Shown piece by piece: positions 9,108 to 18,332 of a DNA stretch of 42,564 nucleotides (within the stretch, counting starts at the first letter, position 1; each line of letters begins with the position of its first letter). A program made the position numbers and the translations under genes. The DNA is taken from NCBI GenBank assembly GCA_018715925.1, contig DVKQ01000101.1, positions 1-42,564 of the forward strand. Reading direction: 5' to 3'. The notes under the pieces are model-generated. The model was not told the DNA's origin and did not search any database. It worked only from the letters and a program-made list of their open reading frames with translations. Source of the stretch: Candidatus Onthousia faecipullorum. GTDB lineage: Bacteria; Bacillota_I; Bacilli_A; RF39; UBA660.

Positions 9108-9569
9108 CTAATTAATATGAAATTCATAAGTCATTTGATAAATATAAGACACTCTATTGTTATAAATTGCTAATAAATAAAATGCTCTAGGTTTATACTT
9201 TCTAACCGTTCTCTCTGCTATCTTCATTTTAGCAGAAATTTGTGAATCTGTCAGTCCATAAAATCCTTTCCACATTAATAATTCTCCCAACATAGCATCT
9301 TTACTTTGAATTTCACATATATTTTTGATATATTGTCCAACTTTATCTTTTTCATTATCCAACTTCTCTACTATTTTATTTTCAAATGAGCTTTTTTTTC
9401 TAACCTGATTTGAGAATTTTATTAAACTAGTAGAGTTCATTGGAATAGTTAGATTTTTTTTAATTCGTCTTTCAACTAATGGCTGATATTTCGTACAAAG
9501 TTTCTTACCATTTAAGATTGTTTTTTGTTCATCTATTTCTGGTATATAAACTTCAGAAGCCTCAATCAT
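9108..9569 (-). CDS. ArpU-like / sigma-region-4-like HTH protein
   Basis: A 153-residue protein. The C-terminal part, about residues 100-140, reads LLMWKGFYGLTDSQISAKMKIAERTVRKYKPRA, summarised here by its LTDSQISAKM...ERTVRKY core, which is a sigma-70 region 4-type HTH as found in phage late transcription regulators such as ArpU. The N-terminal half is charged and shows no clear domain. There is no good ribosome binding site and the ATG follows the cold-shock gene stop by one base, so it is probably translated by coupling. It is last in the overlapping cassette. The ArpU assignment is by pattern only. Confidence 0.55.
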   Translation of the reverse strand: MIEASEVYIPEIDEQKTILNGKKLCTKYQPLVERRIKKNLTIPMNSTSLIKFSNQVRKKSSFENKIVEKLDNEKDKVGQYIKNICEIQSKDAMLGELLMWKGFYGLTDSQISAKMKIAERTVRKYKPRAFYLLAIYNNRVSYIYQMTYEFHIN

Positions 9570-9570
9570 A

Positions 9571-9792
9571 TTATGCCACAGTTTCTACTTCTTCTTGTTC
9601 TATTTTATAAACATTGACTGCTTTCTTTAATTCTGGATCATAGTCAAACTTAACTAAATCTCCTTCATCTAATGTTTTAAAACCACTCATCATAATTTCT
9701 GAAAAATGAACATATATATCATTTTCCACTTCCTCACTTTGAATAAATCCATACCCCAACTGAGCATCAAACCATTTTACTTTCCCTTTCAT
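9571..9792 (-). CDS. Cold-shock domain protein (CspA-like)
   Basis: A 73-residue nucleic-acid-binding protein with the CSD fold: KGKVKWFD at the start, RNP1-like GYGFIQ at about 13-18 and RNP2-like IYVHFSEI at about 26-33. The acidic C-terminal tail EQEEVETVA is unusual. Unlike the normal solitary csp genes it is embedded in a multigene overlapping operon; its ATG lies within the end of the upstream membrane protein gene. It may act as an RNA chaperone or single-strand binding protein for this cassette. Confidence 0.9.
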   Translation of the reverse strand: MKGKVKWFDAQLGYGFIQSEEVENDIYVHFSEIMMSGFKTLDEGDLVKFDYDPELKKAVNVYKIEQEEVETVA

Positions 9793-10343
9793 CTTCTTTT
9801 TCCCTTTCCTTTCGTCTTTAATTCATTTTCTCCTGTAGCAAGTTCATATAATTTATCAATTCTTACTGTAATAGAATTAACAATTAATATCATTGCTACG
9901 GTTACTACCAAATAATAAAAACTACTCATTAAACTACTAAATACTGCAAAATGTATAATTAATAAAACTATTTCTGGTATCAATAAAATTCCACATATAA
10001 ACATCATAATAATTTCTTTTGTACTTTTTATATTTTTCTTTTTGATTGCAATTAATGTTATTGCAAATACAAGTGTAATAATACATATATTGTAAACATC
10101 TAAAATAAAAGCAATAAACTTATTAATATTTATGATATTAACACTTGTAAGATATATTAAACTTTGTGTAACCAGATTTACAAATATAAAAGTTGTTAAT
10201 AAAAATATTATTTGCTTTACTACTTTTAAAATATTAGAAACTTTATGATATTTTTGCATCCTTTTATTATTTCCTTCGCCCTTCCAATACTCCATAGCAC
10301 TTCTATCATATAAATCAGTATAAAACTGTTTTAGTTTTTTCAT
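9789..10343 (-). CDS. Four-span membrane protein of unknown function
   Basis: A 184-residue protein. A basic cytoplasmic start (MKKLKQFYTDLYDRSAM) is followed by four hydrophobic segments (about residues 42-62, 73-98, 108-132 and 136-158) and a basic tail rich in Lys/Gly. It overlaps the MazF gene upstream and the cold-shock gene downstream by four bases each, and has a GGAGGAG site. I do not recognise a family. Confidence 0.65.
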   Translation of the reverse strand: MKKLKQFYTDLYDRSAMEYWKGEGNNKRMQKYHKVSNILKVVKQIIFLLTTFIFVNLVTQSLIYLTSVNIININKFIAFILDVYNICIITLVFAITLIAIKKKNIKSTKEIIMMFICGILLIPEIVLLIIHFAVFSSLMSSFYYLVVTVAMILIVNSITVRIDKLYELATGENELKTKGKGKRR

Positions 10344-10675
10344 TTCTCCTCCTTCAATGATAGAGATATAGATATTGCTTCATCAATATCTTTCATAGTA
10401 CTACGTTTTAAAGTATATTGGTAACAGATTATCTGCTCTTTTGAGATAGTAAAGATATGTTCACATAAAGCCATCTGCTTTGAATCAATCCTTACATGAA
10501 TTGGTAAATCAGTTCTTTTAATTTTTGTAGTAATTGGCACAACAATTAGTGTTTTAGAAAAAGTATTAGCGTAATCATTCTGGACGATTATACATGGACG
10601 TCTTCCGTTTTGAATGTTAGGATAAGAATTATTAAGATTAACTAAATAGACATTGCCCTTTTTATAATTTTTCAT
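10340..10675 (-). CDS. MazF/PemK-family endoribonuclease toxin
   Basis: A 111-residue protein with the MazF fold. The start is KKGNVYLVNLN, then GRRPCIIVQND at about 24-34 and IVVPITTK at about 45-52, with a later CEHIFTI strand; length is normal. It would cleave mRNA in a sequence-specific way. No MazE-type antitoxin is recognisable. The preceding gene (10672-10935) overlaps it by four bases and is the only positional candidate. Its ribosome binding site is weak, suggesting coupled translation. Cassette neighbours include a cold-shock protein, which is unusual for this toxin family. Confidence 0.88.
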   Translation of the reverse strand: MKNYKKGNVYLVNLNNSYPNIQNGRRPCIIVQNDYANTFSKTLIVVPITTKIKRTDLPIHVRIDSKQMALCEHIFTISKEQIICYQYTLKRSTMKDIDEAISISLSLKEEK

Positions 10676-10935
10676 AAAAAGTATATTTTAATTGGTGTTT
10701 TTACTTCAAGAATATAATAAGCGTTTAGAGGATATTTGGACTTTCTTTTGAATCTATCTTTAGGGTTTTCATAAATAATTCTTAATTCACAATTAAATCC
10801 AATCTTTTCTAACTGTTTGATTACATTTTCTTTTCCTACACGTTTTACAAGATCCCTGCCACAAGAACAATTACCAAATTTATCCAGATGATTGATAATC
10901 CATTGTGGTATTATTTCTTCATTAGATTTAGACAT
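10672..10935 (-). CDS. Hypothetical protein preceding the MazF-like toxin
   Basis: An 87-residue protein with no recognised family. It starts at the ATG after GAAAGGATGACATCTAA. It carries NCSCGRDL near residue 22 and a basic central stretch (KDRFKRKSKYP). Its end overlaps the mazF-like start by four bases, so it is a candidate antitoxin or accessory factor, but it has none of the usual antitoxin DNA-binding motifs (AbrB, RHH). Confidence 0.55.
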   Translation of the reverse strand: MSKSNEEIIPQWIINHLDKFGNCSCGRDLVKRVGKENVIKQLEKIGFNCELRIIYENPKDRFKRKSKYPLNAYYILEVKTPIKIYFL

Positions 10936-11034: not shown

Positions 11035-11051
11035 GTAGACTACAGGAAACA
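11035..11051 (+). repeat. 17-bp operator-like repeat, copy 1
   Basis: GTAGACTACAGGAAACA, one base different from copy 2. Part of a four-copy set matching GTnnACnACnGGnAACA across 11.03-11.96 kb. Confidence 0.65.
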
Positions 11052-11105
11052 TTTACTTTTTTTAAAAACACTAGTTATTAAGTGTAATTTTAAAAGTATT
11101 AGTTT

Positions 11106-11122
11106 GTAGACCACAGGAAACA
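11106..11122 (+). repeat. 17-bp operator-like repeat, copy 2
   Basis: GTAGACCACAGGAAACA. It is flanked by TTT on the left and TTT on the right, as in copy 1, giving a 23-base near-identical block. Confidence 0.65.
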
Positions 11123-11286
11123 TTTTGCTTTAAAAAAATAAGTACTCCCTCTAGTTATGTTATGATTTCTCATCACCATCCTCGGTACTTCATCCTACAC
11201 ATACATATTAATCTTTTTTTTGAAAAAAGTCAACCGCTATTTTGAAGATTAAATTGCTGTATAGATATTTTCTATACAGCTTGGTA

Positions 11287-11604
11287 CTATTTTCTCATTA
11301 TTGAGTCAGAATAATCAGATAATAATTTTAAAGTATTATCTAAAATGTCTTCATCCTCTATTGAAACAGTACCAATGATACCAACTGCATTTATTAAATT
11401 TTCTAATTTTACTGCTAATGAACTCGTACATAAAAGATCTTGAGTGGTAGTCTTATAATCTTTTATTATTACATTGAGTTTTTGGAGCAACATTGATAAG
11501 TCTTTATAATTCATACTTTCCTTTAATTCAATGTGCTTTTGTACTACGGTTAATACTTCATCTACTTCTTTTACTACTTTTACTGCTACAATTTCATTAG
11601 TCAT
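11287..11604 (-). CDS. Hypothetical helical protein
   Basis: A 105-residue, probably all-helical, acidic protein without membrane segments. I do not recognise it. It overlaps the upstream small gene by eight bases and has an AGGAAAAAAG site, so the two form an operon expressed from the promoter at 11868-11896, which carries an operator-like repeat. Confidence 0.6.
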   Translation of the reverse strand: MTNEIVAVKVVKEVDEVLTVVQKHIELKESMNYKDLSMLLQKLNVIIKDYKTTTQDLLCTSSLAVKLENLINAVGIIGTVSIEDEDILDNTLKLLSDYSDSIMRK

Positions 11605-11755
11605 ACTTTTTTCCTTCCTTTTTTTGAGTGGTATTTGTGGCTTCTTCCCCCTTTAAATGATTAATACACTCTTCAAGAATCTGGATAGTTGTAGCTCGAT
11701 CTAATTGTGTAGAAATTTTAATCTTTTTATCTTTCCTTGTACTTACACTAATCAT
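11597..11755 (-). CDS. Small basic hypothetical protein
   Basis: About 52 residues from the ATG at 11755 (MISVSTRKDKKIKI), or 61 from the ATG at 11782 (MSSCQVRS). I prefer 11755 because the first ATG lacks a well-spaced ribosome binding site and because a 16-codon leader ORF ends overlapping the second ATG. The segment TQLDRATTIQILEECINHL resembles a short ribbon-helix-helix-like stretch but is too short to be sure. Function unknown. Confidence 0.5.
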   Translation of the reverse strand: MISVSTRKDKKIKISTQLDRATTIQILEECINHLKGEEATNTTQKKEGKKYD

Positions 11756-11798
11756 TATACTTCTGACCTGACATGAAGACATCTCTATATTTATTCAC
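11748..11798 (-). CDS. Possible 16-codon leader peptide, coupled to the next gene
   Basis: GTG start at 11798 with AAGGA six bases upstream, reading MNKYRDVFMSGQKYND and stopping at TAG. The TAG lies within ATGATTAG, so its stop overlaps the ATG of the following small gene, a layout used for translational coupling. It is very short, so the call is tentative. Confidence 0.35.
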   Translation of the reverse strand: MNKYRDVFMSGQKYND

Positions 11799-11867
11799 CT
11801 CTCTTCCTTAGGGTGAAAAAACCACCCTTTTCAAACTATCGCCTCCACTTCATATACTACTAATTTA

Positions 11868-11908
11868 ATAATATCAAAAAAAATTATGTTTGTCTACCAC
11901 AGGCAACA
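11868..11908 (-). promoter_or_regulatory. Minus-strand promoter overlapped by operator-like repeat, copy 3
   Basis: TAGACA (11891-11896), 17 bases, TATTAT (11868-11873) on the minus strand. The repeat GTCTACCACAGGCAACA (11892-11908, plus strand) covers the -35 box, so bound protein would block RNA polymerase. It drives the genes at 11287-11798. Confidence 0.65.
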
Positions 11909-11942
11909 TAATTGCTTAATAATTAAAATTGAAAAGATATTT

Positions 11943-11970
11943 TTGTTACCCGTGGTAGACATTTTATAAA
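11943..11970 (+). promoter_or_regulatory. Promoter of the XRE gene with operator-like repeat, copy 4
   Basis: TTGTTA (11943-11948), 16 bases, TATAAA (11965-11970). The inverted copy of the repeat, TGTTACCCGTGGTAGAC (11944-11960), fills the -35/spacer region. Copies 3 and 4 face each other across 35 bases between divergent promoters, as expected for an autoregulated switch. Confidence 0.7.
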
Positions 11971-12005
11971 AAAAATAGTAAAATGATAAAGAAAGAGGTT
12001 GGATT

Positions 12006-12383
12006 ATGACTAGAAATGAAGCAATAAAAAAAATTGTATCTGATTATATATCATCCAATGGATTATCACAAAGTGATTTTGCTAGGCGTGGTGGATTAAC
12101 TAGAGTTTATGTAAATAAACTTATTAAAAGAGATCCATCAACAAAATATGGAATATCCTCTACCATGTTTGCTAAAATTGCTGATGCAATGAGAATGCAA
12201 GTGCAAGATTTAGAAGATTTAGTACACCTATATGAAGAAAATGATTCTATTCCAAAAGATTACACAGAAATTTCCAAGATTAAAAATGACATAATAAACA
12301 TAATTAGAAATTCAAACCTTAATGAAAAACAATTATTAGAAATATATTACTTTATAAATCAATATAGCTCTAAAAATAGTTAG
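12006..12383 (+). CDS. XRE-family HTH regulator, probable master regulator of the 11-12 kb region
   Basis: A 125-residue protein. HTH at about residues 15-62 (GLSQSDFARRGGLTRVYVNKLIKRDPSTKYGIS, cited by its SQSDFARRGGLT and YVNKLIKRD parts), followed by a helical C-terminal half about 80-125. RBS AAAGAGG is well placed. Its own promoter and the divergent one each carry a copy of a 17-bp motif, and two further copies lie before the MazF cassette. The natural inference is that this protein binds the motif and represses all three. Such switches are typical of integrative elements and phages. Confidence 0.82.
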   Translation: MTRNEAIKKIVSDYISSNGLSQSDFARRGGLTRVYVNKLIKRDPSTKYGISSTMFAKIADAMRMQVQDLEDLVHLYEENDSIPKDYTEISKIKNDIINIIRNSNLNEKQLLEIYYFINQYSSKNS

Positions 12384-12398
12384 AGTTTTTATTTTGCT

Positions 12399-13166
12399 TT
12401 AATACTCAAGTTCTAATTCATCATTTTCTTTATACCATCCCGTTTCATCATCCCATTCTATTTGCTCCAAACTTTCTAATTTTTCAATATTGCTATACAT
12501 CGAGGCTTTAAAATAATTATATTTATTTTCAATTAGATTTCCTTCTTCATCTTTAAATTTATTCTTAATAACTTTATTTGTAATATAATGACTAATTTTA
12601 ATGAGTTCTTGATATGAATATTCAGATAATAATTTATTAAACATTTCATCATATTGAAACAAATCAATATCCATGTCCGAAACATAGTTTTTTTCAATTA
12701 AATCTTTTGTTAAAGGATTTAAATTATTTAAATCAAAAAAAGATGACTTTTCTTTATCATCTTTATCATTTTGTTCTTTAGTATTTTGTTTATTAGTATT
12801 TATTTGCGTTGGGTTATCCATATCTGGATTATCCATATATGGATTTTCCGTATCTGGATAAACTAATTCTTTTTCTATATGTGGTTCTTCATAAATAATA
12901 TATGTATATTCAAATAATCCCTTATCATTTTTGCTCTTTTCTATTACCAAATAATTATTATCTTTTAATTCCTTAAGAGTAGATCTAATTGCATCCTTAC
13001 CCTCTTTACAAATAGAACAAAGTCCAGCAAGAGAATAATCCCAGTCATCAGGTAAGGATAACATGAACGAAAGTAATCCTTTAGCTTTTAATGAAAGTGA
13101 TTTATCTCTTAAATGATAATTACTCATTACTGTGTAATTCTTATTTTTTTCTACTTTAAACACCAT
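12399..13166 (-). CDS. Winged-helix replication-type protein (helix-turn-helix/DnaD-like, element-associated)
   Basis: A 255-residue protein. The N-terminal 95 residues form a winged helix often seen in plasmid, ICE and phage replication proteins (YHLRDKSLSLKAKGLLSFML, LPDDWDYS, GKDAIRSTLKELKDNNYL). A low-complexity linker repeats DNP-type units (PDTENPYMDNPDMDNPTQ). The C-terminal part, about 165-245, is helical. It has a strong GGGGAGGAG site. The family suggests a role in element DNA replication. It follows the terminator of the mobile valS and may need its own promoter, which I could not locate. Confidence 0.75.
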   Translation of the reverse strand: MVFKVEKNKNYTVMSNYHLRDKSLSLKAKGLLSFMLSLPDDWDYSLAGLCSICKEGKDAIRSTLKELKDNNYLVIEKSKNDKGLFEYTYIIYEEPHIEKELVYPDTENPYMDNPDMDNPTQINTNKQNTKEQNDKDDKEKSSFFDLNNLNPLTKDLIEKNYVSDMDIDLFQYDEMFNKLLSEYSYQELIKISHYITNKVIKNKFKDEEGNLIENKYNYFKASMYSNIEKLESLEQIEWDDETGWYKENDELELEY

Positions 13167-13193: not shown

Positions 13194-13212
13194 AAAGAGC
13201 TTAACGCTCTTT
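13194..13212 (-). terminator. Rho-independent terminator of the second valS
   Basis: AAAGAGC-TTAAC-GCTCTTT: a perfect 7-bp stem with a 5-base loop, followed on the minus strand by a T run. It overlaps the valS stop codon. Confidence 0.85.
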
Positions 13213-15631
13213 AATCATTAGAATCCAAATTCAACTCTACCTTATTTACTTTATAATCTTTATCAACTACATTTAATTGTAAATTTTCGATAAATAAAGT
13301 GGCTTTAAAATCTTTGATTGAATTTTCTATTGCATCCTTCAAATCTTCGTTAACATCTAAATCCAAAGTCTTAATCGGAGTTTTTAAAGAAACATTATTA
13401 TTTGTTTTTTCTCCTCTTGCAATACTAATAATTTCAATAATTTGATCTCCTAATTTCATTTCTTTATCAAAACTATTATTTAATTCTTTAATTTCAGTTA
13501 AATGAATTGATTTCTTATTATGATATAATTCTTGATAAATTTCTTCAGTAATGAATGGGAAATAAATACTAAAATCTTGTAATAATTTATAAAGTAAAGT
13601 ATAAACTGTTTTTTGTCCAGAATATCTTGCCTCATCACCAAATTCTTCAGGACGATATAATCTATGTTTTACAATTTCAATATAGTTGTCACAGAAGTTC
13701 CAGAAAAATTTCTCTAGGTGATTCAATGCAAGTCCTACTTCGTATTCATCAAGATATTTTAAAAATCCTTTTTCCATTTCTTGATATTTTCCTAATATCC
13801 ATTTATCAATATATTCATAATTATTAAATTCTTTATCTTTATAATCTTGAAGGTGCATTTCAATGAATTTGGATACATTCCAAATCTTATTTACTAATTT
13901 ACGTCCTCTCTGTAGTGTTTCTTCACTATAAACAATATCTGTTCCTAGACGTCCTGAACCAGCCCAATAACGAATGACATCAGCAGAATATTGGTTAATA
14001 AGATTCAAAGGTTCTACTTTGCTATTACCCTTACTCTTACTAATTTTTTCACCTTTACCAGCCATTACAAATCCAGAAATCATTACATTATCCCATGGTC
14101 TTTGTCCAAAGTGATAAAAACTTTTAACGATTGTATAAAAATCCCATGTTCTAATAATTTCTGAAGCATTAGTTCTTAAACTCATAGGTTTTAAAATATC
14201 TTCATAGTTATCTTTTTCACCATAACGCATATTGATTAATGGTGTTACTGAAGATGTTGCCCAAGTATCCATTACATCTGTTTCAGGAACAAACTCAGTA
14301 CATCCACATTTAGGACATTTATCTACCTTTGGTGAATCCACTAATGGATTAACTGGTAAATCTTCTTTTCTTGCAAATATTGGCTCTCCACACTCTTTAC
14401 AATACCAAACTGGGAATGGAACTCCAAAGTATCTTTGTCTTGATATACACCAATCCCACATGATATTCTCAACCCATTCATTATATCTATTTTGCATGTG
14501 AGCTGGATGCCATTTAATTTCATTTCCAATTTTCAAAAAGTCTTCTTTATGATCCATAGTATCAATAAACCATTGTTTCATAACAGAGTATTCTACTTCT
14601 TTACCACATCTTTCATGTGTTTGAACTTCATGCTCTAATTCTTCAATTTTTACTACAAATCCACCTGCTTGTAAATCTTCAATAATTTGTTTTCTTGCTT
14701 CTTTAATTTTTACTCCTCCATAATTTGGAACACTATCTATAATTCTTCCATCATTTGTAAAAATATATTTTAATGGTAAATTATATTTCTTCCACCACTC
14801 AATATCAGTTTGATCTCCAAAGGTACAACACATTACTACTCCAGTACCTTTATCAATAGCAACTTTCTCATCTGCCATAATTGGTACTTCTACATCTATA
14901 ACAGGAATATGGGCTGTTTTACCAATTAAATGATTATGCTTTTCATCATTAGGATTTACAAAAACACATACAATAGCAGGTAATAATTCTGGACGAGTTG
15001 TTGCAATAGTAAACTCTTCTCCATCTTCTACAGTTTTAAAATTAATATAATTGAATGTTGTTTTTATTGTTTTTGTTTCTAGTTCTGCTTGAGCAATAGA
15101 AGTTAAACATTCATTACACCATAATGCTGGTGATTCTTTATGATAGCAATGACCTTTATCAATTAAGTCTAAGAAAGAAGTTTGACTGATTTTAATTGTA
15201 GAAGGACTAACTGTCTTATAATGAATATCCCAATCTGTACTTACTCCCATTTTACTAAATAATTCTTGAAACTCTGCTTCATATTTATCTGTAGTTTGGT
15301 AACATAATTTTGAAAATTCTTCTCTACCAATTTCATGAGCTTTTTTTCCTTGCTCTTTTTCTACAAGACGTTCACTTGGTAATCCATTATCATCAAAACC
15401 AAAAGGATAGAAAATGTTAAATCCTCTTAATCTTTTGTATCTTGCAATCATTTCTGTTTGTGAATAAGAAAAAATATGTCCAATATGAATTTTACCATTA
15501 ACTGTTGGAGGTGGTGTATCTATAGAAAACACTTTCCTTCCATCTGGAATAAACTTATATATTTTATTCTCATTCCAATAGTTCAACCACCTTGCTTCTT
15601 TTTCTTGTGCATTATATTTTTTATCTAACAT
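13211..15631 (-). CDS. valS: Valyl-tRNA synthetase, archaeal/Rickettsia-like type (replacement copy)
   Basis: A complete 806-residue class I synthetase that would charge tRNA-Val in the cytoplasm. HIGH is at residues 49-52 within [13 protein letters not shown], followed by [16 protein letters not shown], which marks the archaeal-like ValRS group rather than the usual bacterial type ([10 protein letters not shown]). A CP1 editing domain has TTRPELLPA and [15 protein letters not shown]. Zinc-ribbon cysteines occur in WCNEC, CKECGEP and [16 protein letters not shown] (about 527-536) is the KMSKS loop, followed by an anticodon-binding domain. At 806 residues it is shorter than bacterial ValRS (about 880). 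It starts inside the last codons of a broken bacterial-type valS and so lies in that gene's T-box operon. It is most likely the cell's working ValRS. Confidence 0.93.
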
Positions 15632-16545
15632 ACTACATTTTCCTTTCTTTTTATATTAAAAATACTATTAACTGCCATAACTATATCCTTGATAACCCTT
15701 ATAATTACAGGATTTGTACCATCGGGTGTAGTCTTTACACACCCCGTTCCAAACTCTGGATCAGCATGATAATCTCCTACAATAGGTATTTCTTTATTAA
15801 CAATAGGTAGAATTACAGTCTTACCAATTAAATGTTTATATCTATCGTCACTTGGATTAACGGCAACTGCAGTATCACCAAATAGAGTCTCTGGACGAGT
15901 TGTTGCCACATCTAAATATTCATCTGTGCCAGTTATATAATACTTAATATGATAAAATGCTCCCTTATCTTCTTTATAAATAACCTCTTCATTAGATAAA
16001 GCAGTCATTTGTACTGGATCCCAGTTAATAATTCTCTCTCCTCTATAGATTAAACCTTTCTCATAAAGTTTAACAAAGACATATCTAACCGCTTTACTAA
16101 GTCCTTCATCTAAAGTAAATCTTTCTTTAGTATAATCAAGACTAAGTCCTAGTTTAGCCCATTGTTCATGAATAGTAGTAGCATACTCATCTTTCCAACT
16201 CCAAGCATGTTCTAACCACTCATCACGGCTTATACCTCTTGGATTAATTTCCATTTCTCTTAGTCTTTTATCAACTTTCGCTTGAGTTGCAATACCAGCA
16301 TGATCCATTCCTGGAAGCCATAAAGCATCATAGCCGTTCATTCTCTTATATCTAATAATAATATCTTGTAGTGTCGTATTCCAAGCATGACCTAAATGTA
16401 GTTTACCTGTAACATTAGGTGGTGGTATTACTATACAAAAAGGCTCTCTACTCTTATCTTTATCACCTTTAAAGTATCCTTTATTAACCCAATTATTATA
16501 CTTATCTTTTTCTACTTCTTTATGATTATATTTTTTATCTAACAT
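15625..16545 (-). pseudogene. valS: Host bacterial-type valS, truncated after about 274 codons
   Basis: The start is the ATG at 16545 after AGGAGAAAGG. Residues 1-274 are a normal bacterial valyl-tRNA synthetase: HLGH at 50-53, [23 protein letters not shown] and the start of the editing domain ([16 protein letters not shown] at 266-271). After TTP at residue 274 (position 15724) similarity stops abruptly and 32 unrelated codons lead to a stop. The rest of the catalytic domain, KMSKS loop and anticodon domain (about 600 residues) are missing, so it cannot charge tRNA. A break at one sharp point inside a conserved gene, with a foreign complete valS just beyond, points to insertion of a mobile element or recombination. 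The first 21 bases are identical to those of the second valS. Confidence 0.9.
15632..15726. other. Putative integration junction (element end) inside valS
   Basis: Position 15724 is where host valS homology stops. From there to the start of the second valS at 15631 is non-homologous sequence that includes an imperfect inverted repeat, ATCCTTG...ACAGGAT (about 15685-15713). A site-specific attachment core would be expected here, but without the other element end it cannot be defined. Confidence 0.4.
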
Positions 16546-16975
16546 GACCTTTCTCCTCACTTTTCCTATTTTTTTTAATCATTTGATTTTCTATCATCTC
16601 AAGTCCATATATCTCATCAGTATAAATAGTATCATCTACTTTTCTAAAAATATATGCACCTATAGTTGTATAACTAGCATAATTATCTTTATGATTTTCA
16701 AAATATTCCAACTGTCTATCTGTAACTTTACTAGGAAGATAAAATGCTATGACACCTATATCATCTTCAGTCTTATAATTAAAATGTCCTAACTCTGCAA
16801 TACTAAGACCTGCTCCATGTGATTCATCATCTCTAAACTTAAATCCTAATTTATACTTGTCAGAAAAATTCTGATAAGCTTTAACATGAGATTCACCATC
16901 TAAAATATCCTGTTCAAACTTATTTTCTAGTATTTGTTCTTCATCTGGAATAATGGCGACTTTCCCTCTTTTCAT
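16535..16975 (-). CDS. Hypothetical protein in the valS T-box operon
   Basis: A 146-residue soluble protein of unknown family. The start is the ATG at 16975, six bases after AAGGAGG; an upstream ATG at 16981 touches the ribosome binding site. It is acidic and mixed alpha/beta, with [18 protein letters not shown] and [11 protein letters not shown] as its most distinctive stretches. It overlaps the start of the broken host valS by 11 bases and directly follows the T-box terminator, so it is co-regulated with tRNA-Val charging. Confidence 0.6.
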
Positions 16976-17254: not shown

Positions 17255-18211
17255 CTATTTAGTTACCTCTTTTAAAGAAAAATAACTAACAACCTCACTT
17301 AATTCTCCATCAAATACCACTGTTTTATCTTTAATAACATTAGAATTAGTTAATAAACCAGGCTTTAATAATTTCAAATCAATGCTATCTTTAATTAATA
17401 AAAATAATTCATTTCTTTGATAATCATTAATAGAATCATTTATATAACAACTAATAGTATCATTAGTAATAAAACCTATAACTAAATTATAATCACTAAC
17501 TAAATCAATATAAGAATTACTATTTATCTGATAAAATCTTTTTAAAACATTTAATATCTCATCTTTATGAAAACTTTTCGTAACACTTTTTTTAATTATT
17601 AAATCAGACATTATTATAACAATACCAGCATTTCTATTATTTAAAAGATATTTACTATAATCTTCTAAAACTAAACTAGCAAGATTAAAGTCACGATATT
17701 TAGAAAACATTTCTCTTAAGTCATTATCTAATAATAAACTCTTCTCTTTATAAAAACACTCACATATTTTAAAAGGATTTCTTTCTTCTTTAGAATAATT
17801 ATAAGTATAATCATAAAAATCATAATCATTATCTAGGTAATTAGTGATTGTCAAACTAGTTGAATCATAGTTATCTAAAACATCTTGTAAATCTTTTAGA
17901 TCAAGCATACTAACTTTAGAAGGAATATAAATATCTACATTATAATCATCTAATAATGTTACTTCTCCCATACTACTAATAGCTTTATGATAAGCTCTAA
18001 CTATAGTAGTATTATTATCTAAGTTTCTCTTATAAATATCAGTTATTTTTTTATTACCATTATCTAATTCTTCATCACTATATAATCTTAAAGATTTACT
18101 TAAACTTCTATAACTTTGTTTTTTAATATTATCATCACTTATAAAAGCATCTTTCTTTAAGACTTGTCCATCTTTTATAAAATATAAATTTCCTAAATGT
18201 TTACTATTCAT
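17255..18211 (-). CDS. Hypothetical protein, about 318 residues
   Basis: No family is recognised. It is Asp/Asn/Tyr/Ser-rich, without membrane spans, predicted mixed alpha/beta. The first 30 residues (LGNLYFIKDGQVLKKDAFI) look like a small beta domain. The start is probably the ATG at 18211 with GGGTG upstream; an in-frame GTG lies at 18220. It precedes the valS operon promoter directly and is transcribed in the same direction. Confidence 0.6.
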   Translation of the reverse strand: MNSKHLGNLYFIKDGQVLKKDAFISDDNIKKQSYRSLSKSLRLYSDEELDNGNKKITDIYKRNLDNNTTIVRAYHKAISSMGEVTLLDDYNVDIYIPSKVSMLDLKDLQDVLDNYDSTSLTITNYLDNDYDFYDYTYNYSKEERNPFKICECFYKEKSLLLDNDLREMFSKYRDFNLASLVLEDYSKYLLNNRNAGIVIIMSDLIIKKSVTKSFHKDEILNVLKRFYQINSNSYIDLVSDYNLVIGFITNDTISCYINDSINDYQRNELFLLIKDSIDLKLLKPGLLTNSNVIKDKTVVFDGELSEVVSYFSLKEVTK

Positions 18212-18332
18212 AAACTTCACCCTAAATAATAATATAACTACTTTTCTTTAATATCAAGATTATATTGCAAACAATTAGTAGATTCTCTCATCATATGACC
18301 ATAATTAAAATTTATTTATAAATAAATTTTAA

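What the first reader, a model, noticed from the sequence alone, without database searches (positions are those of the whole stretch)
11035..11960. Four copies of a 17-bp operator-like motif around three promoters
GTAGACTACAGGAAACA, GTAGACCACAGGAAACA, GTCTACCACAGGCAACA and (inverted) GTCTACCACGGGTAACA share GTnnACnACnGGnAACA. Copy 3 covers the -35 of a minus-strand promoter, copy 4 fills the -35/spacer of the XRE gene promoter, and copies 1 and 2 lie in the leader of the MazF cassette. This looks like a regulon switch run by the XRE protein at 12006-12383.
Basis: partly seen in the sequence, partly recalled or inferred. Interest (0 to 1): 0.75.

Follow-up and report, generated by a model that had tools for sequence, protein, structure and literature searches.

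The report
Four-operator switch of a mobile element
Four copies of a short DNA sequence look like landing sites for one regulator protein that controls its own gene, a facing operon and a toxin-like gene cassette on a small mobile element of gut bacteria; related elements keep the same layout with matching changes in all four sites, so the switch is very probably real, but it works like many known phage-type switches.

Summary
GTnnACnACnGGnAACA occurs exactly four times in the 1.41 Mb genome, all at 11035-11960; looser matches are at background. The unit is better described as a 16-bp dyad, GTNNAC-N4-GTNNAC, with one half degenerate in this species. Nine related elements in other genomes of the same bacterial family carry the dyads at the same places: a facing pair between the XRE gene and a divergent operon, and (where the contig reaches) two in the leader of the MazF-like cassette. 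In all 20 divergent promoters examined, five bases of the -35 box are the end of the dyad, followed by a 17-nt spacer. The four sites of one element resemble each other more than those of other elements (best of 720 permutations), whereas their flanks do not. Where the cassette carries a very different XRE protein, the dyad is missing. Best reading: the XRE protein is the element's master regulator, most likely a repressor. It would block both divergent promoters at -35 and the cassette by a roadblock in its leader. Binding, sign of control and trigger are untested. The design is known (SetR, Rco, Stl, C proteins); this is a new member, in an apparently undescribed element family.

The parts
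11035..11050 (+). operator copy 1 (leader site nearest the cassette), GTAGACTACAGGAAAC
11106..11121 (+). operator copy 2 (leader site nearest the promoter), GTAGACCACAGGAAAC; in a 36-nt, 81% direct repeat with copy 1
11892..11907 (+). operator copy 3 over the -35 of the divergent (minus-strand) promoter
11945..11960 (-). operator copy 4 over the -35 of the XRE promoter
11956..11984 (+). XRE promoter TAGACA-17-TAAAAT
11868..11896 (-). divergent promoter TAGACA-17-TATTAT (TG before the -10)
12006..12383 (+). XRE/HTH_3 regulator, 125 aa, proposed owner of the four operators
11808..11834 (-). micro-ORF MKRVVFSP with Shine-Dalgarno in the divergent leader, conserved in the related elements
11597..11782 (-). 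P0002, 61-aa protein, first full-size gene of the divergent operon; conserved
11287..11604 (-). P0003, 105-aa protein, second gene of the divergent operon; conserved
11256..11280 (-). terminator-like hairpin of the divergent operon
   Evidence: similar hairpin in the relatives
11205..11233 (-). promoter TTGACT-17-TAATAT of the MazF cassette, matching the conserved TTGACW-17-TATTAT of the relatives
10672..10935 (-). P0004, 87-aa conserved protein ahead of MazF (no family match in Pfam)
10340..10675 (-). MazF/PemK-like protein
9789..10343 (-). membrane-type protein of the cassette, conserved
9571..9792 (-). cold-shock protein of the cassette
9108..9569 (-). 153-aa protein with a weak match to a phage transcriptional activator family
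12399..13166 (-). HTH_36 / phage replication-initiator-like protein, conserved neighbour of the XRE gene

Best explanation
The four sequences are operators of the XRE protein encoded at 12006-12383, the master regulator of a small integrated mobile element. A dimer probably binds the 16-bp dyad GTNNAC-N4-GTNNAC. Bound to copies 3 and 4 it covers the -35 boxes of the two divergent promoters, so it would limit its own synthesis and hold down the facing operon. In the six independent element types these two sites are separated by close to whole helical turns (31-54 bp), which suggests cooperative binding on one face of the DNA. Bound to copies 1 and 2 in the leader of the MazF-like cassette it would stall RNA polymerase as a roadblock; in relatives the first leader site sits directly at the expected start of transcription. 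Shown here: the sites, their conservation, their coupling to the -35 boxes, and their change in step within each element. Inferred: binding by this XRE protein, repression rather than activation, cooperativity and the roadblock. Unknown: what lifts the repression.
For: Exactly 4 exact matches in the genome, all here, control 0. The same layout in relatives: 36 dyads with at most 1 mismatch in 5.2 kb of the two control regions against 16 in 149 kb elsewhere. All 20 divergent promoters have the -35 (TRGACW) formed by the last five operator bases plus one, spacer 17, -10 with 5 of 6 matches. Promoter sites match the leader sites of their own element better than those of others (mean 2.6 vs 5.1 mismatches, best of 720 permutations), while the 10-nt flanks show no such signal (11.5 vs 11.6, 339 of 720). 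Spacing of the divergent pair is phased with the helix (R 0.84, p about 0.009, n=6), leader spacing is not. Dyads are absent in three loci of the cassette type with a different XRE protein. The protein has an HTH fold nearest to SinR and C proteins.
Against: No binding data. The dyad in this species is imperfect: one half is GGNAAC instead of GTNNAC. The operator centre, near -39.5, would also suit an activator that touches sigma. The first leader site at the start of transcription, seen in the relatives, is missing in the window, so roadblocking would rest on sites 76 and 147 nt downstream. The XRE protein scores only just above the HTH_3 cut-off (24.2 vs 23). In the swapped type I could not identify the operator between the XRE gene and the divergent operon.
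Confidence: 0.85

Rival explanations
1. The XRE protein binds the four sites but acts as an activator, or as both activator and repressor depending on its amount, like Rco of pLS20, with the -35-overlapping site helping RNA polymerase at its own promoter. (This shares the binding claim with the best explanation and differs only in the sign.)
For: Operator centre near -39.5 is close to where class II activators bind; -35 boxes are TAGACA or TGGACW rather than TTGACA. Rco of pLS20 both activates and represses its own promoter (PMC4207663).
Against: The promoters already have 17-nt spacers and good -10 boxes, so need little help; the operator covers the -35 box itself; leader sites downstream of the start of transcription fit repression better.
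Confidence: 0.2
2. The leader copies act in RNA, as hairpins near ribosome-binding sites, rather than as DNA operators.
For: Leader sites are in the presumed 5' UTR; in some relatives they fold well (both L034 sites, one L033 site). In the swapped type two unrelated dyads sit just upstream of ribosome-binding sites.
Against: The window copies do not fold better than shuffles. The same sequence occurs upstream of both divergent promoters, where it is not transcribed from them, so the shared function must be in DNA.
Confidence: 0.07
3. The sites belong to another protein of the element or host (replication initiator, integrase accessory factor, P0002 or P0003).
For: Several other conserved proteins of the element are unassigned; the replication-initiator-like protein is a DNA-binding type.
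Against: Sites sit on the XRE gene's own promoter and other control regions only; the elements whose XRE protein is of a different type keep homologues of P0002, P0003, P0004 and the replication-initiator-like protein but lack the dyad.
Confidence: 0.08
4. Chance or repeat-born similarity without function.
For: Copies 1 and 2 are part of a 36-nt direct repeat, so one may be a recent duplicate.
Against: Genome-wide uniqueness, conserved layout in related elements and absence of any signal in the flanks.
Confidence: 0.01

Closest known systems
SetR switch of SXT/R391 integrative elements
   Same: HTH_3 master repressor, four partly dyad operators separated by AT-rich spacers, divergent promoters, self-control (PMC4542580)
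   Different: SetR is 215 aa with a LexA-like domain cleaved in the SOS response; the XRE protein here is 125 aa without it. SetR's four operators are in one region; here two lie in a second operon's leader (a further distant SetR site was suggested but never assessed).
Rco of plasmid pLS20
   Same: Xre-family regulator, divergent promoters, one operator at the promoters and one more than 85 bp downstream of the main promoter (PMC4207663)
   Different: Rco works by DNA looping at one divergent region and controls conjugation genes; no conjugation genes were recognised near this element.
Stl repressor of SaPI / phage-inducible islands
   Same: Element master repressor divergent to element genes (own knowledge); weak structural similarity of the model; small element with integrase and replication-initiator-like protein in relatives
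   Different: No phage packaging or capsid-interference genes recognised; inducer unknown; the Stl chains matched are longer.
C proteins of restriction-modification systems (C.Kpn2I, C.Esp1396I)
   Same: Short XRE fold; C.Kpn2I inhibits a promoter at the -35 and also acts as a roadblock to elongating polymerase (PMC6237814)
   Different: No restriction-modification genes next to it.
SinR of Bacillus subtilis
   Same: Best sequence and fold match among solved structures
   Different: Chromosomal biofilm regulator; different context, and the sequence match covers only the DNA-binding part.

Membership tests
XRE / Cro-CI type HTH regulators (PF01381) | HTH_3 domain above the curated cut-off | tested here: met
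   24.2 bits, cut-off 23; predicted helical HTH domain
XRE / Cro-CI type HTH regulators (PF01381) | Binds dyad operators at its own promoter | tested here: inconclusive
   Dyads present and co-varying; binding itself not testable here
SetR / lambda CI type repressors | C-terminal LexA-like self-cleavage domain | tested here: not met
   125 aa, no Peptidase_S24 match
ICEBs1 ImmR-ImmA type | Adjacent ImmA metalloprotease gene | tested here: not met
   Neighbours P0002, P0003, P0007 have no such match
Phage-inducible chromosomal islands | Integrase, divergent master repressor and replication gene | tested here: inconclusive
   Integrase next to the element in most relatives but not recognised in the searched part of the window; replication-initiator-like protein present
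Phage-inducible chromosomal islands | Induction and packaging by a helper phage | not testable with these tools
   No packaging genes recognised; induction needs an experiment
C proteins of restriction-modification systems | Next to restriction and methyltransferase genes | tested here: not met
   No such gene among neighbours searched
Type II MazEF toxin-antitoxin | PemK/MazF toxin domain | tested here: met
   82.6 bits to PF02452, cut-off 23.1
Type II MazEF toxin-antitoxin | MazE-type antitoxin ahead of the toxin | tested here: not met
   P0004 overlaps the MazF start but has no Pfam or NCBIfam match

The most novel reading that the evidence does not exclude
A family of small mobile elements, apparently undescribed, whose one short XRE regulator (no protease domain, no known partner) controls a MazF-like cassette through paired operators in the transcribed leader. 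Release would come from a partner specific to the element, perhaps the conserved 8-11 aa peptide (ending V-M/V-x-S-S/P) encoded first in the operon that the XRE protein controls.
Probability: 0.12. Interest if true: 0.65.

Novelty: new member of a known kind. Interest (0 to 1): 0.42.

Why it matters
It ties a MazF-like gene cassette to the master regulator of a mobile element in a lineage of uncultured gut Bacilli. It also gives a natural series of regulator-operator pairs in the same gene cassette, including a replaced regulator, in which the rules of XRE site recognition can be tested. The architecture itself, an autoregulated divergent switch with extra operators, is familiar.

Tried and rejected
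Looked for XRE relatives in plasmids, phages and viral contigs: none; for P0004 relatives in viral contigs: none. Exact motif hits in other genomes of the genus: besides the near-identical G004, only single hits in G028, G030 and G032; G028's lies inside a coding frame without an XRE context, and those of G030 and G032 were not examined further and are taken as chance. Considered RNA hairpins for the leader copies; the window copies do not fold. Considered that the within-element likeness is due to duplication; flanks show none, although copies 1 and 2 of the window do share a longer repeat. Considered that 17255-18220 is the element's integrase, as a loose clustering suggested; it has no integrase match, so the window copy seems to lack a recognisable integrase. 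An alignment-based XRE search in viral contigs could not run.

Full report
Observation. The four copies are present at the coordinates given. The exact pattern occurs four times in the 1.41 Mb genome, all here, while the reversed control pattern has none. With two mismatches allowed, the genome has 51 matches against 38 for the control, so nothing beyond the four stands out from background. Near-identical loci in public Bacilli genomes, two of them from chicken by their titles, carry the same sites; these are essentially the same species and do not count as independent evidence.

The real unit. Relatives of the XRE protein at 20-32% identity were found in other genomes of the same family. Upstream of each, at the same place as copies 3 and 4, is a facing pair of 16-bp dyads of the form GTNNAC-N4-GTNNAC, for example GTCTACAATAGTAGAC in L032. 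Read this way the window copies are the same dyad with one half changed to GGNAAC.

The element. The relatives share a gene set: a tyrosine integrase in most, a replication-initiator-like protein, the XRE gene, a divergent operon of two small proteins (P0002, P0003), then after a terminator a second operon. That operon holds a 62-aa protein (missing in the window), P0004, the MazF-like protein, a membrane protein, a cold-shock protein, a protein weakly like a phage activator and a CAP-domain protein. The element lies next to secA in several genomes and is found in a small minority: XRE relatives in 16 of 385 genomes of the order, many of these weak and only some of them true homologues, and P0004 relatives in 13 of 386 genomes of the family, two of these weak. 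This patchiness and the integrase mark it as mobile.

Four sites per element. Outside the window's species, nine elements were examined. Each has two sites between the XRE gene and the divergent operon, and two in the leader of the cassette unless the contig ends first. In one group (G111, G135, G074, G800) the site at the XRE promoter is weaker and was recognised by position with two mismatches. With at most one mismatch, there are 36 dyads in 5.2 kb of these two regions and 16 in 149 kb outside (window included). The elements are not all independent; they fall into six types.

Coupling to promoters. In all 20 divergent promoters (ten elements, window included) the -35 hexamer is the last five bases of the operator plus one, always followed by a 17-nt spacer and a -10 box with five of six consensus bases. 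This explains why copies 3 and 4 read GTAGAC on the side facing the gene whereas copies 1 and 2, which carry no -35, do not. In the relatives the cassette promoter is TTGACW-17-TATTAT with the first leader site right behind it and the second just ahead of the next ribosome-binding site. In the window the matching promoter is at 11233-11205, and copies 2 and 1 lie about 76 and 147 nt downstream of its expected start. Copies 1 and 2 share a 36-nt repeat, so this leader seems to have lost the first site and doubled the second; that is an inference.

Sites change together. Taking one element of each of the six types, promoter sites differ from their own leader sites at 2.6 of 16 positions on average and from those of other types at 5.1; the true pairing is the best of all 720. 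The ten bases on each side show nothing (11.5 against 11.6 of 20; 339 of 720 pairings as good). So the likeness is confined to the site, as expected for sites kept by one co-evolving protein and not for copied DNA.

Helical phase. The two sites between the divergent promoters lie 31, 33, 34, 44, 53 and 54 bp apart in the six types, near 3, 3, 3, 4, 5 and 5 turns (R 0.84, p about 0.009); the leader pairs are not phased. This fits cooperative binding on one face, but n is only six and the test was thought of after seeing the spacings.

A natural replacement. In G848 and G761 the same cassette carries an XRE protein of a very different type, and G327 has the same cassette type with its contig cut before the XRE gene. 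None of the three loci contains a GTNNAC-N4-GTNNAC dyad with at most one mismatch. Instead their leaders have two copies of TGTCAGTTyrAACTGACA, which the other elements lack. I could not recognise an operator between the XRE gene and the divergent operon in that type, so this is support from absence plus an open question.

Protein. The XRE protein passes the HTH_3 cut-off narrowly. The model (mean pLDDT 83) has a helical DNA-binding part and two further helices. SinR is the best match among solved structures by sequence and by fold, followed by C proteins and, further down, SaPI Stl; the fold matches are weak (no E-value below 0.001).

Mechanism. The best reading is a repressor that occupies the -35 boxes of its own and the facing promoter and blocks the cassette in its leader. 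Both modes have a precedent in one protein, C.Kpn2I, which inhibits one promoter at the -35 and stalls elongating polymerase elsewhere (PMC6237814). A dual activator-repressor as in pLS20 Rco (PMC4207663) is not excluded. RNA action of the leader copies is unlikely because the window copies do not fold and copies 3 and 4 lie upstream of both divergent promoters.

Known or new. SetR of SXT has four dyad operators in one divergent region (PMC4542580), Rco has a second operator downstream of its promoter, and Stl is the corresponding repressor of phage-inducible islands. The switch works like these but does not meet the defining tests of SetR (no protease domain), ImmR-ImmA (no protease partner) or C proteins (no restriction genes). 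One literature search for mobile elements of the RF39 group (my own guess at the lineage) gave nothing relevant, so the element family looks undescribed, but that search was limited.

Noticed in passing
window 11808-11834 (-); leaders of the divergent operon in L031-L036, L038, L052, L053: A micro-ORF of 8-11 codons with a Shine-Dalgarno, ending V-[MV]-[FVI]-S-[SP] (V-V-F-S-P in the window), is conserved in all ten elements with the dyad; its stop is kept as TGA, TAA or TAG, which speaks for translation. It may be a leader peptide or a small regulator.
   Followed up: partly
window 10672-10935 (-): P0004, conserved 86-94 aa protein with invariant GNCxCG and KYP..AYYILE, overlaps the MazF start in place of a MazE; no family match. 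Possible unrecognised antitoxin.
   Followed up: partly
L054 662-679 and 899-916; L068 1482-1499 and 1719-1736; L069 19-36 and 255-272: In the type with a different XRE protein, two TGTCAGTTyrAACTGACA dyads each lie just upstream of a ribosome-binding site in the cassette leader.
   Followed up: partly
window 13211-15631 and 15625-16560 (-): Two reading frames for valyl-tRNA-synthetase-like proteins, a long one (806 aa) and a shorter N-terminal piece (311 aa), lie next to the element; L032 has two seryl-tRNA-synthetase-like genes at the same place.
   Followed up: no
L034 6805-6832 (-) and the same leader in L031, L032, L036, L052, L053: Between the two leader sites of the relatives there is a conserved GGAGGTG Shine-Dalgarno-like sequence followed by a tiny open frame or none, perhaps an mRNA-stabilising or attenuation element.
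   Followed up: no
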